Below are positions 3,324-23,579 of a DNA stretch of 64,000 bases, piece by piece. Every line of letters begins with the position of its first letter. Position 1 is the first letter of the stretch. Position numbers and translations under genes: made by a program. The DNA comes from Tistrella mobilis (GTDB lineage Bacteria; Pseudomonadota; Alphaproteobacteria; Tistrellales; Tistrellaceae). Where the stretch lies: the NCBI RefSeq assembly GCF_039634785.1, contig NZ_JBBIAB010000007.1:62001-126000 (forward strand), read 5' to 3'. The notes beneath the pieces are model-generated. The model was not told the DNA's origin, made no database searches, and saw only the letters and a list, made by a program, of their open reading frames with translations.

Positions 3324-4298
3324 TCAGTTCAGATCGATGACGACCTTGCCGGTCGAGCGCCGCTCCATCAGCGCCCTGAGCGCCTTGGGGGCCTCGACCA
3401 TCGGGAAGGTCTCGGAGACATGCGGCTTGAGCTTGCCTTCGGCATACCAGCCGAGCAGCGTCTTCAGGCTGTCGCCCAGCACCTTGGGATCCTTGTGCAT
3501 ATAGGCCCCCCAGAAGGTGCCGACGACCGACACGTTCTTGACCAGCAGCAGGTTGGCGGGGATCTGCGGGATGGTGCCGCTGGCGAAGCCGATCACCAGG
3601 ATGCGGCCTTCCCAGTTGATGCAGCGGAGCGAGGCATCGAAGGCGGCACCGCCGACCGGGTCGTAGACCACGTCGACGCCGCCGACCAGCTCCTTCACCT
3701 TTTCGCGCAGATCATCCTTCGAATAGTCGATCAGGTGGGTCGCGCCGTGGGCGCGGGCGATTTCCAGCTTCTCGGGGCTGCTCGCCACCGCGACCACCTC
3801 GGCGCCCATGGCGGCACCGATCTCCACCGCCGTCAGGCCGACGCCGCCGGCTGCCCCCAGCACCAGCAGCTTTTCGCCCGCCTTCAGATGCGCCCGATGG
3901 TCAAGCGCCACATGCGACGTGCCGTAGGCGACCGGGAAGGCGGCGGCGCTTGCGAAATCCATCATGTCGGGGATCGGCACGACGGCGGCCGCAGGCAGCA
4001 CGACTTCCTGGGTATAGGCGCCGCTCTGCGCCATGCCCATCACCCGCTGCCCGGGCTTCAGATGGGTCACGTCGGCCGCCACTTCCGTCACCTCACCCGC
4101 CAGTTCGATGCCGGGCGAGAAGGGCAGTTCGGGCCGCACCTGGTACTTGCCCTGGATGATCAGCGTGTCGGCGAAGTTCACCCCCGCCGCCCGCACCCGC
4201 ACCCGCACATGGCCGGGTTTCATCTCGGGCGCCTGAATCTCCTTGATCTCAAGATCCTCGGGCCCACCCAGCTTCGTGCACAGAACCGCCTTGATCAC
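3324..4298 (-). CDS. NADPH:quinone oxidoreductase-like medium-chain dehydrogenase/reductase
   Basis: 324 residues, the normal length for zinc-free MDR quinone oxidoreductases (QOR/zeta-crystallin type). The N-terminal GroES-like domain contains AAGVNFADTLIIQGKY and the Rossmann domain carries the AxxGGVG motif in VLGAAGGVGLTAVEIG (about residues 146-161). Typical structural or catalytic zinc cysteines are absent. Reaction: NADPH-dependent reduction of quinones or enones/enoyl thioesters. The start is GTG at 4298 with GGAGG six bases upstream. It lies 56 bases downstream of the TetR gene on the same strand and is probably co-transcribed, so it may reduce an intermediate of the acyl-CoA pathway encoded around it. 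The substrate is not predictable. Confidence 0.88.
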   Translation of the reverse strand: MIKAVLCTKLGGPEDLEIKEIQAPEMKPGHVRVRVRAAGVNFADTLIIQGKYQVRPELPFSPGIELAGEVTEVAADVTHLKPGQRVMGMAQSGAYTQEVVLPAAAVVPIPDMMDFASAAAFPVAYGTSHVALDHRAHLKAGEKLLVLGAAGGVGLTAVEIGAAMGAEVVAVASSPEKLEIARAHGATHLIDYSKDDLREKVKELVGGVDVVYDPVGGAAFDASLRCINWEGRILVIGFASGTIPQIPANLLLVKNVSVVGTFWGAYMHKDPKVLGDSLKTLLGWYAEGKLKPHVSETFPMVEAPKALRALMERRSTGKVVIDLN

Positions 4299-4354
4299 GT
4301 CTTTCCTCCGTTCGACCGGTTTCGATCCGTATCCGTTTCAGTCTTGGGCGCCCG

Positions 4355-5083
4355 TCAGGACGCCGCCTCTACCGCCTCATCCTCTTCCGCCTGCGCGCGC
4401 GGCGATGCCGCCGGGGCGTTCTGGCCAAGGGTGAAGACGGGTATCTGGTGCAGCGGCGGCGCATTGCGGAAGCCCGCCGCGGCAAAGGCCACCATCCGCC
4501 GGATCAGCGCGTCGTAATCCTCCAGATCGCAGACGCCCTGCGAAATCGCCTCCAGGCGGCTGAGATCGGTGATGGTGTAGTGCATCATGCCCAGCGAGAA
4601 ATGCAGCCGCCAATAGATCTCCTCGGCCGCCAGGTCCGGCAGCGCCCGCTGCAGGGCCGGCACGAAGCGGTGCAGGTGGCGCACGTCGCGGTCCAGCAGC
4701 GCCTTCATCTCGGGCGTGCCGTCGGCGCGGCAGCGGGCCAGGAACTGCACGAAAACCGACAGCCCGCGCCCGGGATCCGACATCCAGCGCATCGGCGGCG
4801 CCAGAAGGGCGTAGAGCACCTCTTCCAGCGGCAACGGCCGGTCGCCTGACTTGGCCTCGATCTCGGCCAGCAGCGCCACGCGCTCGCGGTTGAGGTCGCG
4901 CGCCCGACGGTGAAACACCGCCTGCAGCAGCGCATCCTTCGATCCGAAATGATAGTTCACCGCCGCCAGATTGACGTTCGCTTCGGCCGTGATGGTGCGG
5001 AGCGACACACCGGCATAGGTGTGCTCGGCGAACAGACGCTCGGCCGCGTCCAGAATCCTCTCCTTGGTGTCGGTGCCCGCCAT
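4355..5083 (-). CDS. TetR/AcrR-family transcriptional regulator of the acyl-CoA gene block (candidate)
   Basis: 242 residues. The N-terminal TetR HTH is clear: ERILDAAERLFAEHTYAGVS then LRTITAEANVNLAAVNYHFG, followed by SKDALL. The C-terminal ligand domain has the MRWMSDPGRGLSVFVQF and HFSLGMMHYTITDLS segments seen in CerR/PsrA-like regulators of fatty-acid metabolism. It is divergent from the acyl-CoA dehydrogenase at 5460. The intervening 376 bases carry three matches to a CGTTYGTTTGA-like operator, so self-regulation plus control of 5460 is likely. The same motif recurs upstream of the SDR operon (14540) and the ligase (15743). Acyl-CoA as inducer is inference from family and neighbours. 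Confidence 0.9.
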   Translation of the reverse strand: MAGTDTKERILDAAERLFAEHTYAGVSLRTITAEANVNLAAVNYHFGSKDALLQAVFHRRARDLNRERVALLAEIEAKSGDRPLPLEEVLYALLAPPMRWMSDPGRGLSVFVQFLARCRADGTPEMKALLDRDVRHLHRFVPALQRALPDLAAEEIYWRLHFSLGMMHYTITDLSRLEAISQGVCDLEDYDALIRRMVAFAAAGFRNAPPLHQIPVFTLGQNAPAASPRAQAEEDEAVEAAS

Positions 5084-5172
5084 CGATGCGTTCCCATCCG
5101 ATGCTGTTCGCCCGTTGCGGCGGCCGGACCGGCGATGCGATGCGGGGGCATCACATGCGGGCGCTCCATGGC

Positions 5173-5212
5173 CGTTCGTTTCAGGCGACGTTTTAAATCA
5201 ACGTTCGTTCGA
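5173..5212. promoter_or_regulatory. Two operator-like elements upstream of the TetR gene
   Basis: CGTTCGTTTCA (5173-5183) and AACGTTCGTTCGA (5200-5212) each differ by one base from the right half of TCAAACGTTCGTTTGA seen intact at 14643-14658. They are 27 bases apart and 90-130 bases upstream of the TetR start. Autoregulation is inferred. Confidence 0.5.
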
Positions 5213-5383
5213 ATATCGATGACACAGGCGTGACGGCGCGACAATGTAAAACATGCATGTCCGGACAGCGCGGCGATCCAGCCCACCATCTCCGCCCGCT
5301 GCCTGCGTCGCCTCCCCGGCCCTCACCTCTCTTGCGGTTTCTCCATCGACAACGCCCCAAGCCCTGTGCTATCACAGCCTAGA

Positions 5384-5399
5384 TAAAACGTTTGTTTGA
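5384..5399. promoter_or_regulatory. TetR-type operator upstream of the acyl-CoA dehydrogenase
   Basis: TAAAACG-TT-TGTTTGA matches 14 of 16 positions of the palindrome TCAAACG-TT-CGTTTGA (14643-14658). It lies 61 bases upstream of the ATG at 5460, a position suited to overlap with the promoter. The format resembles PsrA-type fatty-acid operators (GAAAC/CAAAC half-sites). Confidence 0.6.
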
Positions 5400-5459
5400 T
5401 ACAAGTGTTGGCAAGCCAGCCGGGCCCCGAAGGTCCGGCCAGATCAGGAGGAAGCCCCC

Positions 5460-6671
<1,212 letters not shown>

Positions 6672-6728
6672 TCCTCGATCAGACCACCGGCCCCGCCTGC
6701 ACCGCAGGCGAGGCCGGACTGCCTTCGG

Positions 6729-6758
6729 AACCCCCCGTCCGGCTGCGGATGGGGGGTT
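6729..6758 (+). terminator. Rho-independent terminator of the acyl-CoA dehydrogenase gene
   Basis: AACCCCCCGTCC (6729-6740) pairs with GGATGGGGGGTT (6747-6758), one G-T wobble, 6-base loop, followed by TT. It begins 57 bases after the stop at 6671. Confidence 0.8.
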
Positions 6759-6808
6759 TTCGCGTGTCGCGGCCCCACCGCCCCCTCGCTCTTGCCTCCC
6801 GTGAAAAG

Positions 6809-6821
6809 TATCATAATGATA
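6809..6821. promoter_or_regulatory. Odd palindrome TATCAT-A-ATGATA, probable autoregulatory operator
   Basis: A perfect 13-bp inverted repeat in an AT-rich patch, ending 23 bases before the GTG of the HTH gene at 6845. HTH-type antitoxins commonly bind such palindromes over their own promoter. No other copy was noticed nearby. Confidence 0.6.
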
Positions 6822-6844
6822 TCTCGATCACGATGGAGGCAGCC

Positions 6845-7303
6845 GTGACCGACACCCTCTACCCCTACACCGAATGCGGGCTGGACAACGTCTATCTCGC
6901 AAACGGCTACACCCTGCGCGAGACACCCTATGGCGAGACGCTCGCCATCCACGACATCGACCGCCTGCATCGGGCGATCGGTCTTGCCCTGGTTCGCAGG
7001 TCAGGCGGGCTGAGCGGTGCCGAGCTCAGGTTTCTGAGGGTCGAACTCGGCTGGTCGCAGGAAGAGCTCGCCCGGCTGCTGGGCCGCGACAAGCAGACCG
7101 TCGGTCGATGGGAACGGGGTGAGAGCAACATCGATCCGCTCGCCGAACGGGTCCTGAAGCTGATCTTCACCGAACATGCCGGCGCGGAGAACACACCACG
7201 CCTGACCGAGCGGCTGTCGGCCTTCGCGGCAGAGACGGCCGGCGGAGGCCGGATGGATGTGGTGATGGAAGAGCGTGGCGGATGGCAGAGCCGGGCGGCG
7301 TGA
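6845..7303 (+). CDS. HTH regulator of MqsA/HigA-antitoxin type
   Basis: 152 residues from a GTG start with GGAGG five bases upstream; an ATG at 6833 would overlap that ribosome site. The C-terminal half is an XRE-type helix-turn-helix: LSGAELRFLRVELGWSQEEL then ARLLGRDKQTVGRWERGESN. This pattern is typical of the DNA-binding domain of MqsA-like antitoxins. The N-terminal ~60 residues (YTECGLDNVYLANGYTLRET) are conserved-looking but lack a visible zinc-cysteine cluster. A palindromic operator lies just upstream. Two more genes of a toxin-antitoxin-like module follow after 125 bases. Whether this protein is an antitoxin or a plain autoregulator is not settled by sequence. Confidence 0.75.
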   Translation: MTDTLYPYTECGLDNVYLANGYTLRETPYGETLAIHDIDRLHRAIGLALVRRSGGLSGAELRFLRVELGWSQEELARLLGRDKQTVGRWERGESNIDPLAERVLKLIFTEHAGAENTPRLTERLSAFAAETAGGGRMDVVMEERGGWQSRAA

Positions 7304-7428
7304 CGCCTTTGCGTTCAGCCTCAAGCTGACCCTGTTCATCGGTGTCGCGAAAAATGCCTGGCAGATATTGCGAAACCACCCGGCGGCGGCCAGATTCATG
7401 GTCGGGCAATCCTCTGGCGGAGACTGAG

Positions 7429-7839
7429 ATGCGCGGCATGACGGCTGAAGAATTGCAGGCCGCATATGATGCCGGTGCGGTGTCTGACGTCACGCTCAAG
7501 GGTGATGGCGGCGACTTTCTGATCGAGATCACGACGCGCAGCGGCGCAGGTCTGCTGACCACGGCCGGGCGCGCCGACATACGCCGCTTCGACGATCCGA
7601 TCACCGCCCTGGCCCTGCTTCACGAGATGGGCATCACCATCGGCCACTTCGATGCCCGCCGATGGAAACCGCATACGCGCGAAGAGACCCCTGAGGCCTA
7701 TGGCCACTGGCTGTTGTCCGAAATCGATGCGGCCCTGGCCGACCCTGCCCCCAGTCTGCCGCATGACGAGGTGATGGCAGACATGGACAGAGAACTCCAT
7801 CAGGTCTTTGCCAGGGCGGGCAGGCGGTCGCCCCGGTAA
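7429..7839 (+). CDS. Hypothetical protein, putative antitoxin partner of the ParE/RelE gene
   Basis: 136 residues starting at ATG 7429 with GGCGGAGA about six bases upstream. The sequence opens MRGMTAEELQAAYDAGAVSD and has a mixed alpha/beta composition. No DNA-binding motif is obvious and no family is recognised with confidence. Its stop overlaps the next start (TAATG at 7837-7841), a translational coupling typical of toxin-antitoxin pairs in which the antitoxin comes first. The antitoxin role is inferred purely from this position. Confidence 0.6.
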   Translation: MRGMTAEELQAAYDAGAVSDVTLKGDGGDFLIEITTRSGAGLLTTAGRADIRRFDDPITALALLHEMGITIGHFDARRWKPHTREETPEAYGHWLLSEIDAALADPAPSLPHDEVMADMDRELHQVFARAGRRSPR

Positions 7840-8129
7840 TGCGGCCGGTGTTCGACATCGTCTGGCGTCCGCGCGCCAGAGCCGACCTTATCGCCATTGT
7901 CCGCCATATCGCGCAAGACAGCCCCCTCCATGCCGAAGCCTTCGGCGCCATGATCCGGCAACAGACCGACAGGCTCTCGGCGCATCCTCATTCAGGCCGG
8001 CCCGGACGCTATGGCGCGTACCGGGAACTGGTGGTGCACCGGAATTATCTCGTGCTGTATCGGATTATCGAGGAGACCGGGATCGTTGAGATCCTGGCGG
8101 TCAAGCACGCCAGACGTCGCCACCCCTGA
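7839..8129 (+). CDS. RelE/ParE-family toxin-like protein
   Basis: 96 residues, the usual ParE/RelE length. The pattern is recognisable: FDIVWRPRARADLIAIVRHI, then the helix with FGAMIRQQTDRLSAHPHSGR, and the C-terminal YRELVVHRNYLVLYRI followed by IVEILAVKHARR. Family members either poison gyrase (ParE) or cleave mRNA on the ribosome (RelE); the wording and the conserved GRPGRYG-YRELVV segment fit the ParE/RelE-StbE group. It is coupled to the upstream gene through TAATG. The module has no separate terminator before the next gene at 8254. Confidence 0.85.
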   Translation: MRPVFDIVWRPRARADLIAIVRHIAQDSPLHAEAFGAMIRQQTDRLSAHPHSGRPGRYGAYRELVVHRNYLVLYRIIEETGIVEILAVKHARRRHP

Positions 8130-8253
8130 CAGGTCGACCGCCGTCATCCATCCACCTCACGCATGGCACCAGAACCGTAACATACCAGGACTAGCATCTG
8201 CGCCCGGCCGGCCGCACGACCGACCCTGTCCTGGATGTTCGGAGATCTGTTCC

Positions 8254-10185
8254 ATGTCCACTCTGCCCGAGGCTTCGCGCCGCACGGTTCTCCGCCTGCT
8301 GGCGGGCATGCCGCTTCTGCCCGTGGCGGGGCTTGCCGCCGGCTCGACGGCGACCGCCTTCGGCCGCACCGCTTTCGCCGCGACCGGTGGCGCCGCCGCG
8401 GCGCCCAGGTCGGTGGAGTTCGTCGCCATGTCGGCGCCTGCCACCGCGGCGGCACAGGCCACCACCACGGTCGGCTCGTCGATGGTGGTGACCTATGCCG
8501 ACGGCAAGACGCAGAATTTCGCGCTGGGCTACGAGCCGCTGTTCATCACCGGCGACGACCTGCCCGACGGCAAGGGCGGCAAGGTGCTGGCCGGCGGCTA
8601 TGTCGACATCAACGGCAAGCCGATCATGGACGCCTCGGGCGAGAAGCCGGTGCAGTTCTTCTCCGACTGCCCGGACGGCTGCAACATGCTGATGCCGATG
8701 GATGCGAAGGTCGCCGGCGTGAAGGGCAACACCGTGTTCGCGGTGGTGCAGTTCGAATACACCACCCGCGATGCCGCCGATAAGGACATGTATGGCCGCC
8801 TGCCCTCGCCCATCGCGGTGCTGACGCTGGACCAGGATCCGGCGACCGGCGCGCTGAAGCTTGTGCAGTACCACAATGTCGACACCAGCCCGGTGCACGG
8901 CCTGTGGATCACCTGCGGCGCCAGCCTGTCGCCCTGGAACACCCATCTATCGAGCGAAGAGTACGAGCCCGACGCGCCCTTCGCCAGGACCGACGAGCAG
9001 TTCCGCGCCTTCAGCCAGAACCTGTTCGGCGATCCGGACAAGGCCAACCCCTATCACTATGGCCATCTGCCCGAGGTGAAGGTGAATGCCGACGGCACCG
9101 GCACCATCACCAAGCACTATTGCATGGGCCGCATCTCGCACGAGCTGGTGCAGGTGATGCCGGACCAGCGCACCGTGCTGATGGGTGACGACGCCACCAA
9201 TGGCGGCCTGTTCATGTTCATCGCCGACAAGCCCGCCGATCTGTCGGCCGGCACGCTTTATGCGGCGAAGCTGGCGCAGCGCGCGGGCGTCGACATCGAC
9301 AAGGGCGGTTCGTTCGATCTGACCTGGGTGAAGCTCGGCCATGCGACCAGCGACGAGATCCGCAAGCTCGCCGACACGCTGACCGCCGCCGACATCGTCG
9401 AGGTGGTGAAGGAGGATCCGAAGGACGCCTCGTTCACCCAGATCGGCTTCAACGGCAAGGCCCAGTGGGTGCGCTTCAAGCCGGGCATGGAGAAGGCGGC
9501 GGCCTTCCTGGAGACCCATCGCTGGGCGCCGCTGCAGGGGGCCACGCTGGCGCTGAGCAAGCTGGAAGGCGTGACCGTCAACGCGAAGGACAAGACCGCC
9601 TATATGGCCGTGTCCTACATCTACAAGTCGATGAGCGACGGCAAGAGCGGCATCAAGGTCGACAAGATCGATGCCGGTGCGGTCTATCAGCTGCCGATGG
9701 AAGGCGGCCGCAAGGATGCCGCCGGCAACGCCATCGACAGCGAGTGGGTGCCGGTGCATTTCTCGGCCGTTCCGGCCCTGGTCGGCCGGGATCTGGCCGA
9801 GCCGGATGCCGTCGGCAACACCGCCGATGTCGACCTGGTCGCCAATCCCGATAACGTGAAGTTCTCGGAGCGGCTGCGCACGCTGTTCATCGGCGAGGAC
9901 AGCGGCAACCACGTCAACAACTTCCTCTGGGCCTATGAGGTCGATACCGGCCGCCTGTCGCGGCTGCTGTCCTGCCCGGCCGGCGCCGAATCGACCGGCC
10001 TGCAGGCGGTCGACGACGTCAACGGCTTCGCCTACATCATGAGCAACTTCCAGCACCCGGGCGACTGGGGCAAGGGGCTGCACGACAAGGTGAAGGCCGA
10101 GGTCGCACCGCTGATCGACGCCAACTACCGCAACCGCCGCAGCGGCGGCGTCGGCTATATCGCCGGTATGCCCCAGCCGGTCTGA
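8254..10185 (+). CDS. PhoX-family (DUF839) phosphatase with Tat signal
   Basis: 643 residues. The N-terminus is a twin-arginine signal: SRRTVLRLLAGMPLLPVAGL with cleavage likely near residue 42 (AFA-A), so the protein is exported folded. Conserved PhoX-type segments are visible: MGDDATNGGLFMFIADKPA, a late GEDSGNHVNNFLWAYEVDTG, and LLSCPAGAESTGLQAVDD. Characterised PhoX enzymes are periplasmic, metal-cofactored alkaline phosphatases that release phosphate from esters. The ATG at 8254 has GGAG upstream; longer in-frame starts would hide the Tat signal. It is a monocistronic gene with a strong terminator. No pho box was identified. Confidence 0.88.
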   Translation: MSTLPEASRRTVLRLLAGMPLLPVAGLAAGSTATAFGRTAFAATGGAAAAPRSVEFVAMSAPATAAAQATTTVGSSMVVTYADGKTQNFALGYEPLFITGDDLPDGKGGKVLAGGYVDINGKPIMDASGEKPVQFFSDCPDGCNMLMPMDAKVAGVKGNTVFAVVQFEYTTRDAADKDMYGRLPSPIAVLTLDQDPATGALKLVQYHNVDTSPVHGLWITCGASLSPWNTHLSSEEYEPDAPFARTDEQFRAFSQNLFGDPDKANPYHYGHLPEVKVNADGTGTITKHYCMGRISHELVQVMPDQRTVLMGDDATNGGLFMFIADKPADLSAGTLYAAKLAQRAGVDIDKGGSFDLTWVKLGHATSDEIRKLADTLTAADIVEVVKEDPKDASFTQIGFNGKAQWVRFKPGMEKAAAFLETHRWAPLQGATLALSKLEGVTVNAKDKTAYMAVSYIYKSMSDGKSGIKVDKIDAGAVYQLPMEGGRKDAAGNAIDSEWVPVHFSAVPALVGRDLAEPDAVGNTADVDLVANPDNVKFSERLRTLFIGEDSGNHVNNFLWAYEVDTGRLSRLLSCPAGAESTGLQAVDDVNGFAYIMSNFQHPGDWGKGLHDKVKAEVAPLIDANYRNRRSGGVGYIAGMPQPV

Positions 10186-10214
10186 ACCGGCCGATCCGCC
10201 CGTCAGTCGACTGA

Positions 10215-10245
10215 AACGGCCGCCCGAGACTTTCGGGCGGCCGTT
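10215..10245 (+). terminator. Hairpin terminator of the phoX-like gene
   Basis: AACGGCCGCCCGA (10215-10227) pairs perfectly with 10233-10245, 5-base loop, 30 bases after the stop. Confidence 0.8.
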
Positions 10246-10596
10246 GATGACTTTATCCAGCCCGGTTCAGGACCGCCGGCATTGCGGGAGAGGCCGGCAG
10301 GACCGTGACCGCCCTCGTCCGGGTGGACGCGCCTCCGGTGCACTTGTGTACATGCTTGATGGCAGAATCAGCCAACGCACCGATCCCGATTGTGCTCAGC
10401 AGTATCCCTGATCAGGCGCCAGGGCTGGCGCTCAAGCCATGTGTCGCACTCAGGCGCGTCTCTCCATCAAAGCCGCGCACTGCTGTGCCCGTCCTCGACG
10501 GCGACCCACGGTCGATGCCTCAGGGGCAGGACCAGCTGCCAGAGAATTTCAGTCCCTGCCTGACTCCACAACGAAAAGGGAGCGGCCAAATCCTTG
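10246..10596. other. Noncoding stretch at the left border of the low-GC gene
   Basis: No convincing gene: the only long frame (10305-10607, +) has no ribosome site, no recognisable sequence and runs antisense into the methyltransferase gene. A 7-bp hairpin, GCGCCAG-GG-CTGGCGC (10416-10431), is present. Composition changes from GC-rich to AT-rich towards the right end. Confidence 0.5.
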
Positions 10597-11265
10597 TCAG
10601 GGTTTAGTAATAAGGGTAGGCGTCGCATAATAAGGCAGCTTAGACAACTGAAGCCCCTTGTCAGCAATAAACTTGTCGATCACTTCAGTCGCCCCCACAA
10701 CGGCATTATAGTCGTCGACGACAATCATGCCTCCCGGAACGATTCGATCGTACATCCTTTTCAGTGCAAATTCGGTCGGCTCTGCCACATCCATGTCAAG
10801 ATGAAGGAGAGCAAGACGCACGTGAGGGTTTTTCTCCAGGTATGCGGGAAGTGCTTCAAAAACATTCCCGCCGATCAATTCCACATTTCTAAAATTTTTA
10901 TGATTTAGAATCGCCTGCAACTCCGATTTATCCAGACCATCACCTCCCGAATTTTCAAATCTTTTTATGAACTCGATATCTCCATCATTAGTAATGTTGG
11001 TCGTGGGGAATTTCCCAAAGATATCAAATCCAACAATTTTCCGGGAGGACTCGTTTTCAAGCAAACTTCGGAATGTTATGAACCGCAGCAGAGACGTGCC
11101 TTTGTACACGCCAAATTCAAATATGTCACCGGGAAGTCCAGCGACCTTCTTGTAGATTTCATAATGTGCGAGAGCTTTATTTATTCGGGAGGGATGACTG
11201 AACCAATAAAAACCATTCTCATAGTCCCATGCTCTTTCGGCGTCCATCTCTCGTATGATGAGCAT
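10597..11265 (-). CDS. TylF/MycF-type SAM-dependent methyltransferase, probably horizontally acquired
   Basis: 222 residues. The SAM-binding beginning is DIFEFGVYKGTSLLRFITF, and the family core LLHLDMDVAEPTEFALKRMY plus IVPGGMIVVDDYNAVVGATE is characteristic of the macrocin O-methyltransferase (TylF) family. In the family the Asp residues in these two segments bind the catalytic metal. Members methylate sugar hydroxyls in antibiotics or in cell-surface polysaccharides. Base composition is far lower in GC than any neighbour, with many A/T-ending codons, so recent transfer is likely. ATG 11265 has AGGGAAG upstream. Directly before it is the palindrome CCCTGATCAGGG (11275-11286). It is a lone gene without biosynthetic neighbours, so the acceptor is unknown. 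Confidence 0.85.
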   Translation of the reverse strand: MLIIREMDAERAWDYENGFYWFSHPSRINKALAHYEIYKKVAGLPGDIFEFGVYKGTSLLRFITFRSLLENESSRKIVGFDIFGKFPTTNITNDGDIEFIKRFENSGGDGLDKSELQAILNHKNFRNVELIGGNVFEALPAYLEKNPHVRLALLHLDMDVAEPTEFALKRMYDRIVPGGMIVVDDYNAVVGATEVIDKFIADKGLQLSKLPYYATPTLITKP

Positions 11266-11716
11266 TTCAAACTTCCCTGATCAGGGTGATTTGGTACCAA
11301 TTCGAGCACTCAATTTAGAGATCTACCGCAAGGATTTTCTGGAATTTTGCAGGCAGGCGCAACGAAAATATCCGTGACGCGCAATCTGAATAAAACGCGC
11401 CAGATCTTCAACATCGCCACCTATGTCGCGTCATGTCGCGTCGGAGGAGGCGCTCTGCCTCCTCAGCCAGCGCCAGCCTCCATTTGGCCGCGATCGGAAC
11501 AGCGCCACAGCCCCGGCGCAACCGCACTCACCACCCGCGGTCGTCAGGGGGCCGCCAACCATCGACAGGCGAGCGGCTCGCCGACATGGACAAGGCACTC
11601 GCGAGGCACTGCTCCAGCAGCGTGCACCGCTTACTCCGACCAGCCCGCATCATGGCCGACAGTATATCCAGTAAAAAGAAGACAGAGGTTTCGGACTGCG
11701 CCTGCCGGTAAAGACG
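11266..11716. other. 450-base noncoding region on the right border of the imported gene
   Basis: AT-rich near the methyltransferase start, then GC-rich. It holds a palindrome CCCTGATCAGGG (11275-11286), a tandem 10-bp repeat ATGTCGCGTC (11423-11432 and 11433-11442) and an 8-bp hairpin GAGGAGGC/GCCTCCTC (11444-11464). Short frames on the + strand (for example 11423-11674) lack ribosome sites and recognisable sequence. It may be decayed mobile DNA, but no transposase residue pattern could be recognised. Confidence 0.45.
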
Positions 11717-12769
11717 TCAGTCGCTCGCGACCTGCTTCCAGCCCAGCTCGGCGAGCAGCGAGGCCCGGGCGCCGACCACCTTGGCACGCTCGGAGCTCGC
11801 ATTGCCAGTGATGCCGCGGTGATAGACGCCCTGAAGAATGGCGGCCAGGCGGAACATGGCGAAGGCCTTGTAGAACGGCCAGTCGTCGATGCCGTCGCGG
11901 CCGGTGCGGCGGCAATAGGCGGCGACGTATTCCTCTTCCGTCGGCACGCCCAGCGCTCCGAGATCGATCCCGCCGAGGCCGGGGAAGCCCTCGTCGCCGG
12001 CCGGCAGGCTGTAGAACATGGCGTTGTAGGCGAAATCCGCCAGCGGATGGCCGATCGTCGCCAGCTCCCAGTCCAGCACCGCCAGGATCTTCGGCTCGGT
12101 CGGGTGGTAGATCACATTGGCGATGCGATAGTCGCCATGGGCGATCGACACGCTGTCATCGGCCGGGATATTGGCCGGCAGCCAGGCGATCAGCTGATCC
12201 ATCGCCGGGATCTCGTGGGTCTTGGTCGCCTCGTACTGCTTGGACCAGCGGGCGATCTGGCGGGCCATGTAGTCGGTGGCCTTGCCCATATCGGCCAGCC
12301 CCGCCGCCGTGAAGTCCACGCTGTGCAGCGCCGCCATCACCCGGTTGAGCTCGTCATAGGTGGCGCGGCGCTCGTCGGGGCCAAGACCGGGCAGGGTCGG
12401 GTCGGTCAGCACCCGGCCTTCGACATAGTCCATGACATAGAAGGCCGTGCCGATGATCCCTGCATCTTCGCAAAGCAGCCGCGCCGGCGCGACCGGGACA
12501 TCGGTGTCGGCGAGCCCGGCGATGAAGCGATATTCCCGCTCCACCATATGCGCCGAGGGCAGCAGCTTGCCCGGGGGCTTCTTGCGCAGCACATAGCGGC
12601 GCCCCGCGCTCTTCAGCATATAGGTCGGGTTCGACTGCCCGCCCTCGAACTGCAGGATCTCGAGGTCGGCGGGGTCGAAATCGGGCAGACGGTCGGCCAG
12701 ATAGGCCGAAAGCGCCGCCTCGTCGAGGCGATGAGCCTCGCGGACCGGAACGAGATTGGGGCCGGACAT
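11717..12769 (-). CDS. APH-family phosphotransferase, ACAD10/11 kinase-domain-like
   Basis: 350 residues with an aminoglycoside-phosphotransferase fold. The nucleotide-binding part has FEGGQSNPTYMLKSAGRRYV then LRKKPPGKLLPSAHMVEREY; the catalytic loop is AHGDYRIANVIYH and the metal-binding segment is VLDWELATIGHPLADFAY. These exact patterns are those of the N-terminal domain of animal ACAD10/ACAD11 and of LvaA-like bacterial proteins, which phosphorylate 4-hydroxyacyl-CoAs, not of antibiotic-resistance APHs. The start at 12769 leaves the usual N-terminus; a longer frame to 12850 has no better site. It is last in a three-gene - strand operon behind two SDRs. It pairs functionally with the ACAD at 5460 (inference). 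Confidence 0.88.
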   Translation of the reverse strand: MSGPNLVPVREAHRLDEAALSAYLADRLPDFDPADLEILQFEGGQSNPTYMLKSAGRRYVLRKKPPGKLLPSAHMVEREYRFIAGLADTDVPVAPARLLCEDAGIIGTAFYVMDYVEGRVLTDPTLPGLGPDERRATYDELNRVMAALHSVDFTAAGLADMGKATDYMARQIARWSKQYEATKTHEIPAMDQLIAWLPANIPADDSVSIAHGDYRIANVIYHPTEPKILAVLDWELATIGHPLADFAYNAMFYSLPAGDEGFPGLGGIDLGALGVPTEEEYVAAYCRRTGRDGIDDWPFYKAFAMFRLAAILQGVYHRGITGNASSERAKVVGARASLLAELGWKQVASD

Positions 12770-12907
12770 GTGGCGCAGGATCTCCGGAGGTTCAGTGGTG
12801 GATGCAGACGGCCGCGGCCGGACATGACGAAACGGAAGGGCCGGCGTCACCGCCCGCCCCTCCGCTTCAATGTTCCGGCCGGGCTCGTATCGGATGGGTC
12901 CGCCCGC

Positions 12908-13684
12908 TCAGAGCGTGTCGCCGACGGTGACACCGCCGTCGATCACCAGCAGCTGGCCGGTGATGAAACGGGCGGCGTTCGACGCCAGGAACACGGCGGC
13001 GCCGCCGATATCCTCGGGCTCGCCGATCCGGTGCAGCGGGGCCGACTTCTCGACCTTCTCGCGCATCTTGGGGTTCTCCCAGAGCGCGCGGGCGAAATCG
13101 GTCTTGATCAGGCCCGGAGCGATGGCGTTGATGCGGATGTTGTGCGGCCCGTATTCGATCGCGAGGTTGCGCACCATCTGCGCCTCGGCGGCCTTCGACG
13201 CGGCATAGGCGCCCAGCACCGGCGTGCCGCGGATGGCGGCGATCGACGAGATCAGCACGATGGCGCCGTCGCGGCGCTCCTTCATCTCGGGCACCACCTG
13301 ATTGCAGAGCCAGAGATTGGAGAGCACGTTGTTCGACATGATCTTGACGAAGGCCTCGTCGGGCATCTCCGCCGCCGGGCCGTAATAGGGGTTGCTGGCG
13401 GCGTTGCCGACCAGGATGTCGACCCGACCGAACGCCTTGCGGGTCTCGGCGATCAGGTTCTCGCAATCATCCTTGCTGCTGATGTTGCAGGGAACGTCGA
13501 TCGCCTCGGCGCCCTTGGCGACCAGTTCCGCCCGCACCGCGGCGCAGGGCTCGGGCTTGCGGCTGGAGATCACCACCTTCGCACCGGCGGCCGCCATCTG
13601 CTCGGCGATCGACTTGCCGATGCCGCGGGTGGAGCCGGTGATGACCGCGACCTTGCCGGTCAGGTCGAACATCGGATTGGTCAT
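12908..13684 (-). CDS. SDR-family oxidoreductase
   Basis: 258 residues, classical short-chain dehydrogenase. Visible are the cofactor motif TGSTRGIG (about residues 15-22), the structural NAA (LVGNAAS), the active-site SS…YAASK and the C-terminal FITGQLLVIDGGVTVGDTL. The start at 13684 has GGGAGG nine bases upstream. It lies between another SDR and the phosphotransferase in one operon. Similar SDRs linked to ACAD10/11-type genes interconvert oxo- and hydroxyacyl-CoAs, which would fit making or removing a 4-hydroxyl, but the substrate cannot be read from sequence. Confidence 0.9.
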   Translation of the reverse strand: MTNPMFDLTGKVAVITGSTRGIGKSIAEQMAAAGAKVVISSRKPEPCAAVRAELVAKGAEAIDVPCNISSKDDCENLIAETRKAFGRVDILVGNAASNPYYGPAAEMPDEAFVKIMSNNVLSNLWLCNQVVPEMKERRDGAIVLISSIAAIRGTPVLGAYAASKAAEAQMVRNLAIEYGPHNIRINAIAPGLIKTDFARALWENPKMREKVEKSAPLHRIGEPEDIGGAAVFLASNAARFITGQLLVIDGGVTVGDTL

Positions 13685-13763
13685 GGGTCGGGAACCTCCC
13701 TCAGGATCTGTCATGGTCCGGCCTCTCGGGCGGGCCGGCTGGCTTGGCTGCGAAGGACCGCGA

Positions 13764-14540
13764 TCAGGCGGCGGTGTTGCCACCGTCGACCGCAAGCTCG
13801 GTGCCGGTCACGAAGCTGCTCTCGTCGCTGGCGAGATAGAGTGCGGCATAGGCGACCTCTTCCGGCCGGCCCATGCGCCCCATCGGTGCCGCGGTGGAGA
13901 GCGCCGCCTCCATCTTGTCCGGGTTGCGCGCGGCGGTGATCATGTCGCGCACCATCGGGGTCTCGGTGAAGGACGGGTGGATGGAGTTCACCCGGATGTT
14001 GTAGCCGCGCCGGGCACAATGCAATGCCGCCGCCTTGGTGAACAGGCGCACCGCCCCCTTGCTGGAGCAATAGGCCGCGAGGTTCACCGCACCGATCAGG
14101 CCGGCGATCGACGAGATGTTGACGATCGAGCCGCCGCCCGTGCCCTTCATCACCTTGATCGCCTTGCGGGTGCCGAGGAAGGGGCCTTCCGAATTCACCG
14201 CATGGACGCGCTTCCACTCGGCAAGCGTGGTCTCTTCCAGATCGGCCATATAGCCGATACCGGCATTGTTGATCAGCACGTCCAGCCGGCCGAATTCGGC
14301 GACACCGGCATCGACCACCTCTTCCCAGCGGGCTTCGTCGGTGACGTCCTGCTCCATCACCATCACCCGGTCGTGGCCATCGCCCGCCAGATCCGCCTTC
14401 AGCGCCTCCAGCCGGTCGGCCCCCATATCGGTCAGGATCAGCCGGGCCCCTTCGGCCGCGAACAGATGGGCCATCGCCCGGCCCAGGCCGCCGGCGGCCC
14501 CCGTGATCAGAACCACCTTCCCTGCCAGCCGTCCGCCCAT
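13764..14540 (-). CDS. SDR-family oxidoreductase
   Basis: 258 residues with TGAAGGLG cofactor motif, NNAG (VLINNAGIGY), catalytic Ser in NISSIAG and YCSSK. The C-terminus FVTGTELAVDGGNTAA is typical. The ATG at 14540 has GGAGGAGG eight bases upstream, better than the GTG at 14558. Gene order on the - strand is this SDR, the second SDR (79-base gap), then the phosphotransferase (138-base gap), with no terminator between. A palindromic TetR-type operator lies about 103 bases upstream. The enzyme is unlike its neighbour SDR in most positions, so the two probably act on different steps. Confidence 0.9.
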   Translation of the reverse strand: MGGRLAGKVVLITGAAGGLGRAMAHLFAAEGARLILTDMGADRLEALKADLAGDGHDRVMVMEQDVTDEARWEEVVDAGVAEFGRLDVLINNAGIGYMADLEETTLAEWKRVHAVNSEGPFLGTRKAIKVMKGTGGGSIVNISSIAGLIGAVNLAAYCSSKGAVRLFTKAAALHCARRGYNIRVNSIHPSFTETPMVRDMITAARNPDKMEAALSTAAPMGRMGRPEEVAYAALYLASDESSFVTGTELAVDGGNTAA

Positions 14541-14642
14541 GTCCGGGGCCTCCTCCACTGAAAGACATGACGGGTGGGACCGGTCTCGCTGCGGCCCCTT
14601 CCCGCTTGATCTCGGGCAGTGTTTCCGGTTTCATCGCCTACG

Positions 14643-14658
14643 TCAAACGTTCGTTTGA
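14643..14658. promoter_or_regulatory. Best copy of the TetR-type operator, TCAAACG-TT-CGTTTGA
   Basis: Perfect 7-bp arms around TT in the divergent interval between the SDR operon (start 14540, - strand) and the surE-like gene (start 14709, + strand). Related sites occur at 5173-5212, 5384-5399 and 15597-15606. Confidence 0.7.
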
Positions 14659-14708
14659 ACGAGACATCATCTCCACCCGTCTCGATCTGCCCGAGGATGC
14701 CGCCGACG

Positions 14709-15515
14709 ATGACCTCTGCCACCGCAGCCCCGCGCCGGATGCCCGCCCGCATCCTGCTGACCAATGACGACGGCATCGACGGCGAAGGCCTGGCGGTGCT
14801 GGAGCAGATCGCGCGGGAGCTGGCGCCCGAGGTCTGGGTCGTGGCCCCCAGCCGCGACAGCAGCGGCGGGTCCACGGCACTCACCATCCGCCGGCCGCTG
14901 CGGGTGCACGAGCTGGGGCCCCGGCGATACAGGGTCGACGGCACGCCGGCCGATTGCGTGGCGGTCGCCCTGTCTTATCTGATGCCCGATACGAAACCCG
15001 ATCTGGTGCTGTCGGGCATCAATCGCGGCGCCAATCTGGCGGAAGAGGTGATCTATTCGGGAACGGTGGGGGCGGCGACCACCGCCCAGCTGATGGGCAT
15101 TCCGGCAATCGCCCTCAGCCAGACCTTCCGCGACCCGGCCTTCATTCCCTGGGACACGCCGCGGACGCTTGCCCCGGGCATGCTCCGCCGCCTGATCCAG
15201 GCCGGGTGGCCCGCGGATGTCACGCTCAGCCTCAACTTCCCCGACTGCGCCGCCGACGAGGTTCGCGGCGCCCGGCTGACCCGTCAGGGCCGCGGCATGA
15301 TCGGCGGCATCCGCATCGAGTCCACCGTCGACCACCATGGCGACACCGATCTCTGGCTGCGCTTCGACCGCGCCGGTCTGGACCGGACGGACGACTGCGA
15401 CATTCAGGCGCTGCGCGATCGCCATGTGTCGGTAACCCCGCTCGGCGTGGACCGCAGCTGGGCCGGAGATCGCGCACCGCTCGCCGCACTCGCCCAGGGG
15501 CTGATCGATCGCTGA
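14709..15515 (+). CDS. surE: 5'/3'-nucleotidase SurE
   Basis: 268 residues. SurE metal-binding and active-site segments are all visible: ILLTNDDGIDGEG (Asp-Asp near residues 20-21), VAPSRDSSGGSTALT, GTPADCVAVALS and the signature VLSGINRGANLAEEVIYSGTVGAA. The enzyme is a metal-dependent phosphatase acting on nucleoside monophosphates. ATG 14709 has GAGGA upstream; ATG 14739 is an alternative that would still keep the catalytic start. SurE usually neighbours pcm/nlpD, but here it sits between acyl-CoA genes and its promoter region contains the shared operator. It may therefore be a paralogue recruited to lipid or CoA-ester metabolism (inference). Confidence 0.92.
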   Translation: MTSATAAPRRMPARILLTNDDGIDGEGLAVLEQIARELAPEVWVVAPSRDSSGGSTALTIRRPLRVHELGPRRYRVDGTPADCVAVALSYLMPDTKPDLVLSGINRGANLAEEVIYSGTVGAATTAQLMGIPAIALSQTFRDPAFIPWDTPRTLAPGMLRRLIQAGWPADVTLSLNFPDCAADEVRGARLTRQGRGMIGGIRIESTVDHHGDTDLWLRFDRAGLDRTDDCDIQALRDRHVSVTPLGVDRSWAGDRAPLAALAQGLIDR

Positions 15516-15532
15516 ACCTGCTGCCGCCGGTG

Positions 15533-15590
15533 GCGTGCCGGCACGCGATCGCGCGGTTCGCCGGCATTTGTGCGAAACGGGCACAAATGC
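15533..15590. terminator. Two hairpins after surE
   Basis: A perfect 14-bp palindrome GCGTGCC/GGCACGC (15533-15546) is followed by GCATTTGTGC (15564-15573) pairing with GCACAAATGC (15581-15590) across a 7-base loop. Either may end surE transcription. The second is close enough to the next operator to be part of a regulatory region instead. Confidence 0.5.
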
Positions 15591-15596
15591 GTGAGA

Positions 15597-15606
15597 CAAA
15601 CGTTTG
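15597..15606. promoter_or_regulatory. CAAACGTTTG palindrome upstream of the acyl-CoA ligase
   Basis: A perfect 10-bp palindrome in the context GACAAACGTTTGACC, 137 bases before the ligase start. It contains the left half-site and TT centre of the operator at 14643-14658 but with different spacing of the right half. Confidence 0.5.
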
Positions 15607-15742
15607 ACCTGTCGCGCAAGACCAGCCACGATAACGACGACCGGCCGCTCAAGAGCCGGCACTCAACGATAAACGGCACCGCACGCCGGGGGTGTGCGAA
15701 GCGGTGCCGGCCGTGCTGCTGCTAGGGAGGAATATCCGTATC

Positions 15743-17398
15743 ATGTCCCGTCCTCTGCCGCTTCTGGGGCAGATGATGGACAGGCCGCTGTCCATCATTG
15801 CGTTGCTGCAATACGCAGCCCGTTGCCACGCCACGACCGAGATCGTGTCGCGCAACTGCGAAGGCACCATCCACCGCTACGGCTATGGCGACGCCTATGC
15901 CCGGGTGCAGAAGCTGGCCCACGCCCTGGTTTCGCTGGGGGTGACACCCGGCGACCGCGTCGCGACGCTGGCCTGGAACAACCACCGGCATTTCGAGCTG
16001 TATTTCGCGATTTCGGGGATGGGGGCGGTCTGCCACACCATCAACCCGCGCCTCGCCGCCGACCAGATGGCCTATATCCTCAACCATGCCGAGGACAAGG
16101 TTTTGTTCGTCGACCCGACCTTCGTACCGCTGGTGGCCCGGCTTGCCGGCCAGTTGCCCAGGCTGCAGGCCGTGGTGGTGATGACCGACCGGGCGCATAT
16201 GCCCGACGCGCCGGCCGGCTTCGAGACGCTCTGCTATGAAGACCTGATCGAGGGCCAGCCCGAAAGCTATGACTGGCCGGAGCTGGACGAGCGCACGGCA
16301 TCGTCGCTCTGCTACACCTCGGGCACGACCGGCAAGCCCAAGGGCGTGATGTACAGCCATCGCTCCACCGTGCTCCATGCCATGGCAGCGGGTGCCGCCG
16401 AAGGCGTCGGCATTTCGGGCCGCGAATGCGTGCTGCCGGTGGTGCCGCTGTTCCATGTGAACGCCTGGGGCATTCCCTATGCCTGCGCCATGTTCGGCGC
16501 CAAGCTGGTGATGCCCGGCCCGCGTCTGGACGGCGAAGGCCTGCACGAGATGTTCGAGGCCGAGAAGGTCACGATCACCGCGGGCGTGCCGACGGTCTGG
16601 CTGAACCTGATCAACTATCTCCGCCAGTCGGGCAAGCGGCTCGACATGCTGAAGAATCTGCTTATCGGTGGTTCGGCGGCCCCGCTTGCCATGATCCGGA
16701 CCTTCGAGGAAGAGTTCGGCGTGCCGGTGGCCCATGCCTGGGGCATGACCGAGATGAGCCCCGCCGGCACTGTCGGCACGCTCAAGGTGACGGACGAGTC
16801 CAGGCCTGCGGAAGAACGCTGGCTGCTCAAGACATCTCAGGGCCGGATGATCTGCATGGTCGACATGAAGATCGTCGACCCGATGGGCAACCGACTGCCC
16901 CATGACGGCAAGGCCTTCGGCGAACTGCTGGTCGCCGGCCCCTGGATCACCAGCGGTTATTACGAGAATGCCGAAGCCAATGCCTCGGCCTTCGACGACG
17001 AAGGCTGGTTCCGCACCGGCGACGTCGCGACCATCGACCCCGACGGCTATATGCGCATCGTCGACCGGGCGAAGGACGTGATCAAATCGGGTGGCGAGTG
17101 GATCAGCTCCATCGACCTTGAAAATGCGGTGATGGGCCATCCCAAGGTGGCAGAGGCCGCGGTGATCGGCGTTACCCATCCGAAATGGGACGAACGGCCG
17201 CTGCTGATCGTGGTGCCGAAGCCGGGTGAGACCCCCACCAAGGACGAAATCCTGTCCTGGCTGTCGAGCCGCGTGGCGAAGCTCTGGCTGCCCGACGACA
17301 TGGTGCTGGTCGACGAACTGCCCCATAGCGGCACCGGCAAGGTGCTGAAGGCACAGCTCCGCCAGACCTTCCGCGACTACGCACTGCCCACGGCCTGA
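15743..17398 (+). CDS. Medium/long-chain acyl-CoA ligase, AlkK-like
   Basis: 551 residues, a class I adenylate-forming enzyme that activates a fatty acid to acyl-CoA with ATP. The opening LGQMMDRPLSIIALLQYAAR and the context SRNCEGTIHRYGY are close to the AlkK medium-chain ligase pattern. The P-loop is SSLCYTSGTTGKPKG, with the later GMTEMSPAGTVG, TGDVATIDPDGYMRIVDRAK and C-terminal GTGKVLKAQLR with the catalytic Lys. ATG 15743 has AGGGAGG upstream. A CAAACGTTTG operator-like site lies upstream, and a strong terminator follows. It could supply substrates to the dehydrogenases at 5460 and 26041-30387. Confidence 0.92.
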   Translation: MSRPLPLLGQMMDRPLSIIALLQYAARCHATTEIVSRNCEGTIHRYGYGDAYARVQKLAHALVSLGVTPGDRVATLAWNNHRHFELYFAISGMGAVCHTINPRLAADQMAYILNHAEDKVLFVDPTFVPLVARLAGQLPRLQAVVVMTDRAHMPDAPAGFETLCYEDLIEGQPESYDWPELDERTASSLCYTSGTTGKPKGVMYSHRSTVLHAMAAGAAEGVGISGRECVLPVVPLFHVNAWGIPYACAMFGAKLVMPGPRLDGEGLHEMFEAEKVTITAGVPTVWLNLINYLRQSGKRLDMLKNLLIGGSAAPLAMIRTFEEEFGVPVAHAWGMTEMSPAGTVGTLKVTDESRPAEERWLLKTSQGRMICMVDMKIVDPMGNRLPHDGKAFGELLVAGPWITSGYYENAEANASAFDDEGWFRTGDVATIDPDGYMRIVDRAKDVIKSGGEWISSIDLENAVMGHPKVAEAAVIGVTHPKWDERPLLIVVPKPGETPTKDEILSWLSSRVAKLWLPDDMVLVDELPHSGTGKVLKAQLRQTFRDYALPTA

Positions 17399-18043: not shown

Positions 18044-18282
18044 TGTTTTTGAAGCCCAGGATCGATTAGGTTATAAGCAATTGTGGTGCAAGGCCCTGAG
18101 AGGCCGCACCGCCAACAACATACCGGCCAGGTAAAGGCCGGTCCGGATGCCGGTTCGACAGGAACGGGCATCCGTCAGGAACAGGCACCGCCGATGGCGG
18201 CGCGCGCCCCCGGGAGGGCGCCCGTGTCCGCGCCGGCAGATGTGCCGCTACGCAACGACGTAGGATGCCAAGGGAGGCTGCG

Positions 18283-19548: not shown

Positions 19549-19555
19549 CGTCGCC

Positions 19556-19588
19556 CGGCGGGCCGGAGGTGATCCCTCAGGCCCGCCG
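19556..19588 (+). terminator. Hairpin between binding-protein and permease genes
   Basis: CGGCGGGCC (19556-19564) pairs with 19580-19588, and inside it GAGG/CCTC adds four pairs after one mismatch. It starts eight bases after the stop of the binding protein. Such intra-operon hairpins commonly protect or attenuate so that binding protein exceeds permease. The following bases to 19791 are GC-rich and contain several CCCGGG elements but no gene. Confidence 0.6.
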
Positions 19589-19791
19589 ATATCCCCGCCC
19601 GCCATCCGTTCGCCCGGTCCCCGCCCGCGGGACAGATGGCAGGCCGGGAATCGCCAGACACCGGACGCCGGGATGCCCATCCCCGGGACCGCGACTCCCG
19701 GGACGGCGACCCGATCCCGGGGCGGCCTCGGACCGGCCCCGACCGCGCGCCATCGACGCGCTGGCCGACGCCGGCCGCGCCACACCTCGCA

Positions 19792-23526: not shown

Positions 23527-23579
23527 CGCGCGGAGCGTAGTCTGATACACGCTTGGGCAACCAGCCCCGGCATATTTGC

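What the first reader, a model, noticed from the sequence alone, without database searches (positions are those of the whole stretch)
3324..17398. Candidate split ACAD10/11-type pathway for 4-hydroxyacyl-CoA degradation
Seen: an acyl-CoA dehydrogenase (5460-6671) with ACAD10/11-specific segments and a separate APH-like protein (11717-12769) that matches the ACAD10/11 kinase domain, with two SDRs and an AlkK-like ligase nearby. Known: animal ACAD10/11 fuse these two domains, and Pseudomonas LvaA (kinase) and LvaC (dehydrogenase) act together on 4-hydroxyacyl-CoA. Inference: this locus encodes the kinase, dehydrogenase, reductases and ligase of one pathway, split in two blocks around unrelated genes.
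Basis: partly seen in the sequence, partly recalled or inferred. Interest (0 to 1): 0.75.

Follow-up and report, generated by a model that had tools for sequence, protein, structure and literature searches.

The report
Split 4-hydroxy-acid kinase module with SurE
A bacterium carries, as separate genes with shared control sites, the kinase and lyase types that animals fuse in ACAD10/11 to break down 4-hydroxy fatty acids, and some related bacteria pair the kinase with a phosphatase-family protein (SurE) that may keep the phosphorylated intermediate in check.

Summary
Window 5460-6671 is an ACAD10/11-type dehydrogenase and 11717-12769 an ACAD10/11-type kinase. They match the two halves of mouse ACAD11 and keep the residues reported for the phospho-acyl-CoA site and kinase catalysis. 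(1) All 20 and all 48 kinase-bearing genomes of two samples also hold the dehydrogenase; in 13 of the 20 the genes lie within 6 kb. (2) Both blocks have PsrA-type palindromes in their promoter regions; 9 of the genome's 13 best sites flank acyl-CoA genes. (3) In Halopseudomonas, Stutzerimonas and Marinobacter the genes form one operon: dehydrogenase, SDR, kinase, SurE, then SDR or ligase.

I propose that it dephosphorylates the phospho-intermediate or restrains the kinase; that is inference. The split pathway itself is known (lva operon; B. pseudomallei orthologues). Substrate unknown; nothing was assayed.

The parts
3324..4298 (-). zinc-type quinone oxidoreductase / enoyl reductase-like protein, downstream of the TetR gene
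   Evidence: Pfam ADH_N + ADH_zinc_N; PIG3 family 250.6 bits, below its cut-off of 296.8
4355..5083 (-). TetR regulator, PsrA-like
   Evidence: TetR_N + TetR_C_30; best NCBIfam model PsrA repressor, 143 bits, below its cut-off of 300
5197..5212 (.). weaker PsrA-type palindrome on the TetR side (2 mismatches in the 12-base core)
   Evidence: inside a block identical in the window, G001 and T. mobilis
5384..5399 (.). PsrA-type palindrome TAAAACGTTTGTTTGA, upstream of the ACAD gene
   Evidence: conserved in L039 and L096
5460..6671 (+). ACAD10/11 (LvaC)-type acyl-CoA dehydrogenase, proposed to turn 4-phosphoacyl-CoA into 2-enoyl-CoA
   Evidence: R255, H263, C264, M265, R266 and D382 equal mouse R626, HCMR 634-637 and D753
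11717..12769 (-). ACAD10/11-type kinase (APH fold), proposed 4-hydroxyacyl-CoA kinase
   Evidence: R170, D213 and N218 equal mouse R176, D220 and N225
12908..13684 (-). SDR 1, next to the kinase; 55-64% identical to the SDR beside the kinase in 14 loci and 6 (T. mobilis not counted)
   Evidence: Pfam adh_short
13764..14558 (-). SDR 2
   Evidence: Pfam adh_short
14643..14658 (.). perfect PsrA-type palindrome TCAAACGTTCGTTTGA between SDR 2 and SurE
   Evidence: only zero-mismatch place in the 6.16 Mb genome
14739..15515 (+). SurE-family phosphatase (the genome's second SurE); same subfamily as the SurEs beside related kinases
   Evidence: PF01975 192.6 bits; second copy; residues; trees
15592..15607 (.). 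PsrA-type palindrome (2 mismatches) upstream of the ligase
15692..17398 (+). acyl-CoA ligase (AMP-binding)
17447..17908 (-). MaoC-type enoyl-CoA hydratase
   Evidence: PF01575 78.5 bits; start as
18265..23526 (+). branched-chain-type ABC importer (binding protein, two permeases, two ATPases); a permease-permease-ATPase-ATPase run also follows the ligase in the one related locus scanned (L215)
   Evidence: link to this pathway inferred

Best explanation
The locus encodes a split ACAD10/11-type pathway that brings 4-hydroxy (or 4-oxo) acids into beta-oxidation. Inferred route: the ligase makes the acyl-CoA; one SDR reduces a 4-oxo group if present; the kinase phosphorylates the 4-hydroxyl; the ACAD-type enzyme eliminates phosphate with FAD to give the 2-enoyl-CoA; MaoC and the downstream beta-oxidation genes continue. 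The two blocks are one regulon under PsrA-type operators, probably read by the adjacent TetR protein and relieved by acyl-CoA or fatty acid. A second SurE phosphatase belongs to the module. Its likeliest job is to remove phosphate from stalled or hydrolysed 4-phospho-acyl products, or to hold the kinase in check. Shown: homology, diagnostic residues, co-occurrence, linkage, sites and the SurE association. Inferred: substrate, order of steps, the regulator that binds, and the SurE function.
For: Homology to both halves of ACAD11. Equivalents of R626, H634, M636, R637 and D753 in 78 of 78 ACAD10/11-like rows and C635 in 77, rare in 21 other ACADs; kinase R176, D220 and N225 in 103 of 103 rows. 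Of 58 genomes (own, one congener, 56 of the class) all 20 with the kinase also hold the ACAD, 13 within 6 kb; so do all 48 of 145 genomes with a kinase in the Stutzerimonas order sample. PsrA motif C/GAAACN2-4GTTTG/C as quoted in PMC11233452 (passages read). In the genome 38 strand hits (up to 3 mismatches) against 7 for the reversed control. Of 13 distinct places with up to 2 mismatches, three lie in this locus, and 9 (those three included) flank acyl-CoA genes. SurE.
Against: In 7 of the 20 genomes that hold both genes they are not seen close together (some are drafts with the genes on different contigs). The genome has three other ACAD10/11-like kinases and two other such ACADs, so the partners are not fixed by position. 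Ligases of the gammaproteobacterial SurE operons are only 24-27% identical to this one, and one such operon (L214) has no ACAD gene beside it. The TetR scores below the PsrA cut-off and binding is untested. By count in the window the loose motif is not striking: 6 matches, with 9 of 100 shuffles reaching 6. SurE is divergent from the kinase here, about 1.7 kb away; its subfamily also occurs with no kinase within 1.5 kb in six genomes; and 51 of 58 such kinases in one sample have no SurE within 20 kb.
Confidence: 0.75

Rival explanations
1. Kinase and ACAD are a true pathway pair, but SurE is a bystander: an ordinary nucleotidase carried along in an operon, with no role in 4-hydroxyacyl-CoA metabolism.
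For: SurE lies on the opposite strand here, about 1.7 kb from the kinase. The same SurE subfamily is found with no kinase within 1.5 kb in six genomes. None of 51 other kinases in the Stutzerimonas order sample has SurE within 20 kb, so the pathway does not need it.
Against: Linkage in Tistrella, an Ectothiorhodospiraceae MAG, Halopseudomonas, Stutzerimonas and Marinobacter in different gene orders; in 6 of 17 non-Tistrella linked loci, some of the 17 being near-copies of each other, a SurE start codon overlaps the kinase stop by 4 bp, the only candidate start in two; 7 of 7 kinases of that clade in the order sample have it.
Confidence: 0.4
2. The two blocks are unrelated acyl-CoA genes that happen to lie close; the dehydrogenase serves another kinase and the kinase another dehydrogenase.
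For: Unrelated genes lie between them (HTH, PaaA2-like, PhoX, TylF). Paralogues of both exist elsewhere in the genome.
Against: Shared promoter palindromes conserved in Tistrella genomes; one operon in other bacteria. The TylF gene is at 44.5% G+C and absent from this place in two congeners, so part of the gap is recent.
Confidence: 0.1
3. The module works on a compound that is not a simple 4-hydroxy fatty acid, for instance a lactone- or terpenoid-derived hydroxy acid; the chemistry is the same but the physiology differs.
For: The adjacent regulator is TetR/PsrA-like, not the sigma-54 type of lva (PMC6692424, passages). An ABC importer and a large beta-oxidation cluster follow at 18265-35986. 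LvaB, LvaD and LvaE were not compared.
Against: Nothing specific; chain length and substrate cannot be read from these data.
Confidence: 0.4

Closest known systems
Mammalian ACAD10 and ACAD11 (PMC12440821, outline and passages read; PMC11342911, passages read)
   Same: Same kinase domain and same ACAD domain with R626, HCMR and catalytic D753.
   Different: Fused in one gene in animals (ACAD10 is cleaved later), separate genes here. ACAD10 adds a HAD domain; this locus has a separate SurE protein.
[quoted passage not shown] Rand et al. 2017 is not held; known here through passages of PMC12440821, PMC11342911 and PMC6692424)
   Same: Separate kinase and ACAD genes with SDR and ligase.
   Different: LvaA is reported as only 29% identical to the ACAD10/11 kinase domains (PMC11342911), whereas this kinase aligns to mouse ACAD11 at 292 bits. 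The regulator is of another family and SurE is added.
Burkholderia pseudomallei orthologues of LvaA/LvaC tested in vitro (PMC11342911, passages read)
   Same: Separate bacterial proteins of the ACAD10-like kinase and ACAD type, each able to replace the ACAD10 domain.
   Different: Not fetched or compared here; their gene neighbourhood was not examined.
Pseudomonas citronellolis lva cluster (PMC6692424, passages read)
   Same: A phosphatase-family gene lies next to the kinase gene.
   Different: There it is a histidine phosphatase next to an LvaA homologue; here it is SurE with an ACAD11-type kinase.
Canonical SurE 5'/3'-nucleotidase (best solved match 4zg5, 232 bits)
   Same: Same family; D10, D11, S42 and N95 kept (that these bind the metal is recalled).
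   Different: Second copy in a separate subfamily; positions 186 and 111 are G in 20 of 20 linked rows, where 47 other rows have R in 44 and A in 44.

Membership tests
ACAD10/11 (LvaC)-type ACAD | Much closer to ACAD11 than to other ACADs | tested here: met
   508 bits against 146 for the next ACAD outside the group
ACAD10/11 (LvaC)-type ACAD | Arg626, His634-Cys-Met-Arg637 and catalytic Asp753 | tested here: met
   R255, H263-C-M-R266, D382
ACAD10/11 (LvaC)-type ACAD | Turns 4-phosphoacyl-CoA into 2-enoyl-CoA without an external electron acceptor | not testable with these tools
   needs an enzyme assay
ACAD10/11-type kinase | Kinase-domain homology, catalytic Asp220/Asn225 and Arg176 | tested here: met
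   292 bits over residues 9-350; D213, N218, R170
ACAD10/11-type kinase | Arg86 beside the alpha-C Glu | tested here: inconclusive
   An Arg-Glu pair (R78-E79) is invariant in nine aligned kinases, but my numbering did not place the paper's R86 on it
ACAD10/11-type kinase | Phosphorylates the 4-OH of acyl-CoA but not the free acid | not testable with these tools
   needs an enzyme assay
lva operon | Sigma-54-type regulator LvaR | tested here: not met
   the adjacent regulator is TetR/PsrA-like
lva operon | Small accessory protein LvaB | not tested
   no LvaB sequence at hand
SurE phosphatase | PF01975 domain with the metal-binding residues | tested here: met
   192.6 bits; D10, D11, S42, N95 kept in 20 of 20 linked rows (the role of these residues is recalled)
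PsrA regulon | C/GAAACN2-4GTTTG/C palindromes at the promoters | tested here: met
   exact match at 14643-14658; site at 5384-5399 fits but for its first base; motif from PMC11233452
PsrA regulon | Regulator is PsrA | tested here: inconclusive
   143 bits against a cut-off of 300; binding not testable here

The most novel reading that the evidence does not exclude
4-hydroxyacyl-CoA kinases of the ACAD10/11 and LvaA kinds have repeatedly acquired an unrelated phosphatase-fold partner that limits or recycles the phospho-intermediate: a HAD domain in animal ACAD10, a histidine phosphatase in one Pseudomonas lva cluster, and a SurE paralogue here. If so, control of the 4-phosphoacyl-CoA pool is a general need of this pathway, and SurE-2 is a new phosphatase activity or kinase regulator.
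Probability: 0.35. Interest if true: 0.75.

Novelty: new variant of a known kind. Interest (0 to 1): 0.58.

Why it matters
The mammalian enzymes were assigned only in 2024-2025, and how the phosphorylated intermediate is kept from accumulating is open: the ACAD10 HAD domain restrains the kinase by an unknown route (PMC11342911, passages). Bacterial operons that couple the same kinase type to a SurE phosphatase give a tractable system for that question. The PsrA-type sites also tie 4-hydroxy acid entry, with sites before a paralogous dehydrogenase and, more weakly, a paralogous kinase, to a general acyl-CoA degradation regulon of Tistrella.

Tried and rejected
Looked for lva operons in the four Pseudomonadales loci with the most similar ACADs (L206-L209): blastp found no relative of the window kinase in the 13 kb held around each, though the unlabelled neighbours were not scanned. 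So no direct LvaA/LvaC comparison was made. The Rand 2017 paper is not held.

Thought at first that the kinase-linked SurEs form an exclusive clade. Adding the next-best SurEs of a 398-genome sample put six rows with no kinase within 1.5 kb inside the same starred group, so I dropped exclusivity. Whether five of those six are second copies, and whether those genomes hold a kinase elsewhere, was not checked; the sixth (G027, long branch) is that genome's only SurE. Four of the five gammaproteobacterial top hits lie on contigs of the same lengths as in genomes and are probably the same genomes, so they are not counted as new.

Looked for other phosphatases in ten proteins next to kinases without SurE: one HAD protein (L099), no histidine phosphatase; HAD is therefore not claimed as a general partner in this clade. 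Seven neighbours of three SurEs without a kinase show no shared theme.

First gene calls by base composition chose a false reading frame over the kinase and were replaced by a codon-based caller trained on the window. That caller missed the kinase in L098, L101, L105 and L112 (35-57% G+C); these, with L115, L030 and L031 (ACAD loci where no kinase was found), were left out of the neighbourhood counts. A residue-numbering offset was wrong, which also stopped with an error, and was corrected. Structure prediction and fold search were not used. Of the places with 3 mismatches to the palindrome only some had neighbours scanned.
Full report
Setting. The window lies in a 6.16 Mb Tistrella-like genome (62 contigs, window at C7:62001-126000). 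The closest named locus is Tistrella mobilis KA081020-065 (L039), kinase 97% identical; the module's genes there are 96-100% identical.

Observation. The ACAD matches mouse and human ACAD11 at 502-508 bits, against 146 bits for the next ACAD. The kinase matches mouse ACAD11 residues 9-350 at 292 bits, and 3ats (another APH-like protein) only at 54 bits. Residues that PMC12440821 (outline and passages read) assigns to the phosphate-binding site and catalysis are present: R255, H263, C264, M265, R266 and D382. Across 78 ACAD10/11-like rows from my loci these positions are R 78, H 78, C 77, M 78, R 78 and D 78; in 21 other ACAD rows they are R 3, H 1, C 2, M 1, R 5 and D 1. The kinase residues matching R176, D220 and N225 are kept in 103 of 103 rows. 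The paper's R86 could not be placed by number; an Arg-Glu pair like the one it describes is present.

Tree. In a quick 103-row kinase tree the window kinase lies in a 31-row group with the mouse ACAD11 kinase (SH-aLRT 89, unstarred) within a starred 51-row set. 9o56 falls outside with one other row; 3ats and other APHs were not in the tree. The place of the long mouse branch is unsure, as the program warns.

Genome copies. The genome holds four kinases of this type at E up to 1e-90 (C7 in the window, C2, C9, C4) and three ACAD10/11-like dehydrogenases (C7 in the window, C37 69% identical with HCMR, C33 50% identical with HAMR). So the window pair need not be exclusive.

Co-occurrence and linkage. 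In 58 genomes (own, one congener, 56 others of the class), 20 have the kinase (E up to 1e-90) and 22 the ACAD (E up to 1e-130); all 20 with the kinase have the ACAD (Fisher 1e-13, not corrected for relatedness). By coordinates the two lie within 6 kb in 13 of these 20, own and congener included; in the other 7 they are on different contigs or more than 20 kb apart. In 145 genomes of the Stutzerimonas order, 48 have a kinase (E up to 1e-75), all 48 have the ACAD (E up to 1e-110), and 29 have the ACAD only. Around 76 kinase loci (of 83 looked at) an SDR-cluster gene lies within 6 kb in 51, an ACAD-cluster gene in 42, SurE in 14, thiolase in 13 and an AMP ligase in 12; these clusters are broad, and three loci are copies of the window region.

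One operon elsewhere. In Halopseudomonas, Pseudomonas neustonica and P. abyssi the order is ACAD-SDR-kinase-SurE-SDR. In Stutzerimonas, Marinobacter and related genomes it is ACAD-SDR-kinase-SurE-ligase; one of these (L214) has no ACAD beside it. In L215, the one scanned, the ligase is followed by two permeases and two ATPases of a branched-chain-type importer, as in the window at 18265-23526. This supports joining the window's two blocks. In these operons the SDR before the kinase is 55-61% identical to SDR 1 (not in L047), but the ligases are only 24-27% identical to the window's. A ligase closer to the window's (54-58%) lies in the kinase loci L057, L063, L080 and L081.

Regulation. The TetR gene is closest to PsrA (143 bits, cut-off 300). 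PsrA binds C/GAAACN2-4GTTTG/C (PMC11233452, passages read). PsrA controls fatty acid degradation in several gammaproteobacteria (PMC5343134 and PMC3223726, passages read). The window has a perfect TCAAACGTTCGTTTGA between SDR 2 and SurE, a one-mismatch site before the ACAD, a two-mismatch site before the ligase, and a weaker one on the TetR side. At up to 2 mismatches in the 12-base core there are five sites in 64 kb; four lie in these intergenic regions and one elsewhere, at 42110. By count the pattern is at best weakly enriched in the window: 6 matches with 9 of 100 shuffles reaching 6, 6 matches with 2 of 100. Genome-wide, up to 3 mismatches, 38 strand hits (some palindromes count on both strands) against 7 for the reversed control. 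I count 13 distinct places with up to 2 mismatches. Three are in this locus. Six more flank an AMP ligase and a carboxyltransferase, a MaoC gene, the C33 ACAD paralogue (about 42 bases before its region of similarity, inside the longest reading frame), an enoyl-CoA hydratase, a biotin carboxylase and a thiolase. Four flank other genes or a contig end. A three-mismatch site lies just upstream of the C4 kinase paralogue. The sites sit in blocks identical between the window and the congeners aligned (two congeners for two regions, one for the third). The motif was not found at that stringency in the gammaproteobacterial operons looked at, save scattered 2-mismatch hits. Which protein binds is untested.

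SurE. Among the 58 genomes only the two of this genus have two full SurE matches (two others show split or partial matches). Of 12 locus genomes with a kinase-linked SurE, 11 hold two SurEs and one MAG only the linked one; of 8 without, 7 hold one and 1 none. In the 145-genome order sample there are 58 kinases. The 7 that are 64% or more identical to the Stutzerimonas kinase (itself included) all have SurE within about 150 bases by match ends; none of the other 51 has SurE within 20 kb, though some lie on short contigs. In 17 non-Tistrella linked loci SurE follows the kinase on the same strand; in 6 a candidate start overlaps the kinase stop by 4 bp, in two of them the only candidate. In Tistrella SurE is divergent, about 1.7 kb from the kinase, sharing the operator region with SDR 2. 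Linked SurEs fall in one starred group away from the other SurE of the same genomes, but the enlarged tree puts six rows without a kinase nearby in the same group, so the subfamily is not exclusive to this pathway. The metal residues (recalled as such) are kept; positions 111 and 186 are G in 20 of 20 linked rows, where 47 other rows have A in 44 and R in 44.

Reading. Free 4-phospho acids appear in mammalian cells, likely by hydrolysis of the CoA ester, and the ACAD10 HAD domain restrains the kinase although it has negligible phosphatase activity (PMC11342911, passages read). The P. citronellolis lva cluster has a histidine phosphatase gene beside the LvaA homologue, and no LvaB (PMC6692424, passages read). 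A SurE paralogue beside an ACAD11-type kinase would be a third phosphatase-fold partner. That SurE acts on 4-phospho acids or restrains the kinase is inference. I saw no paper linking SurE with these kinases among those listed by searches of the held library; the lists of 57 and 73 were cut at 15 of 57 and 10 of 51 papers, 'sure' is also a common word, and most subscription journals are missing.

What is known. Split kinase and ACAD genes are established in bacteria: the lva operon, and B. pseudomallei orthologues that replace the ACAD10 domains in vitro (PMC11342911, passages). The locus is thus a new variant of a known pathway: same chemistry by homology, a different regulator, and an added SurE.

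Noticed in passing
window 10597-11265 -: TylF-like methyltransferase gene at 44.5% G+C in a window of 67.5%; this place lacks it in two congeners (L096, L039), so it looks like a recent insertion between the two blocks.
   Followed up: partly
window 6749-8129: HTH protein, a PaaA2-type stability determinant and a 96-aa reading frame in a row: a likely toxin-antitoxin module between the blocks; the third protein was not scanned.
   Followed up: no
window 8254-10185 +: PhoX-like phosphatase gene whose N terminus (SRRT) suggests twin-arginine export; among the 57 loci it was found only in T. mobilis. If exported it cannot act on acyl-CoA.
   Followed up: no
window 18265-35986: Large beta-oxidation cluster: ABC importer, enoyl-CoA hydratase/3-hydroxyacyl-CoA dehydrogenase fusion, three ACADs, another 3-hydroxyacyl-CoA dehydrogenase and an acyl-CoA ligase.
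   Followed up: partly
L099 11280-11918 -: HAD-family hydrolase next to an ACAD10/11-type kinase in one alphaproteobacterial genome, recalling the HAD domain of ACAD10; no sequence relative in the reading frames of 150 aa or more of the loci then held.
   Followed up: partly
L224, L225, L227, L228, L229: SurE genes of the same subfamily with no kinase within 1.5 kb, in five genomes; role unknown, and not checked whether they are second copies.
   Followed up: partly
L206-L209: ACAD10/11-like dehydrogenases, 71-73% identical to the window's, with no relative of the window kinase found in the 13 kb around them.
   Followed up: no
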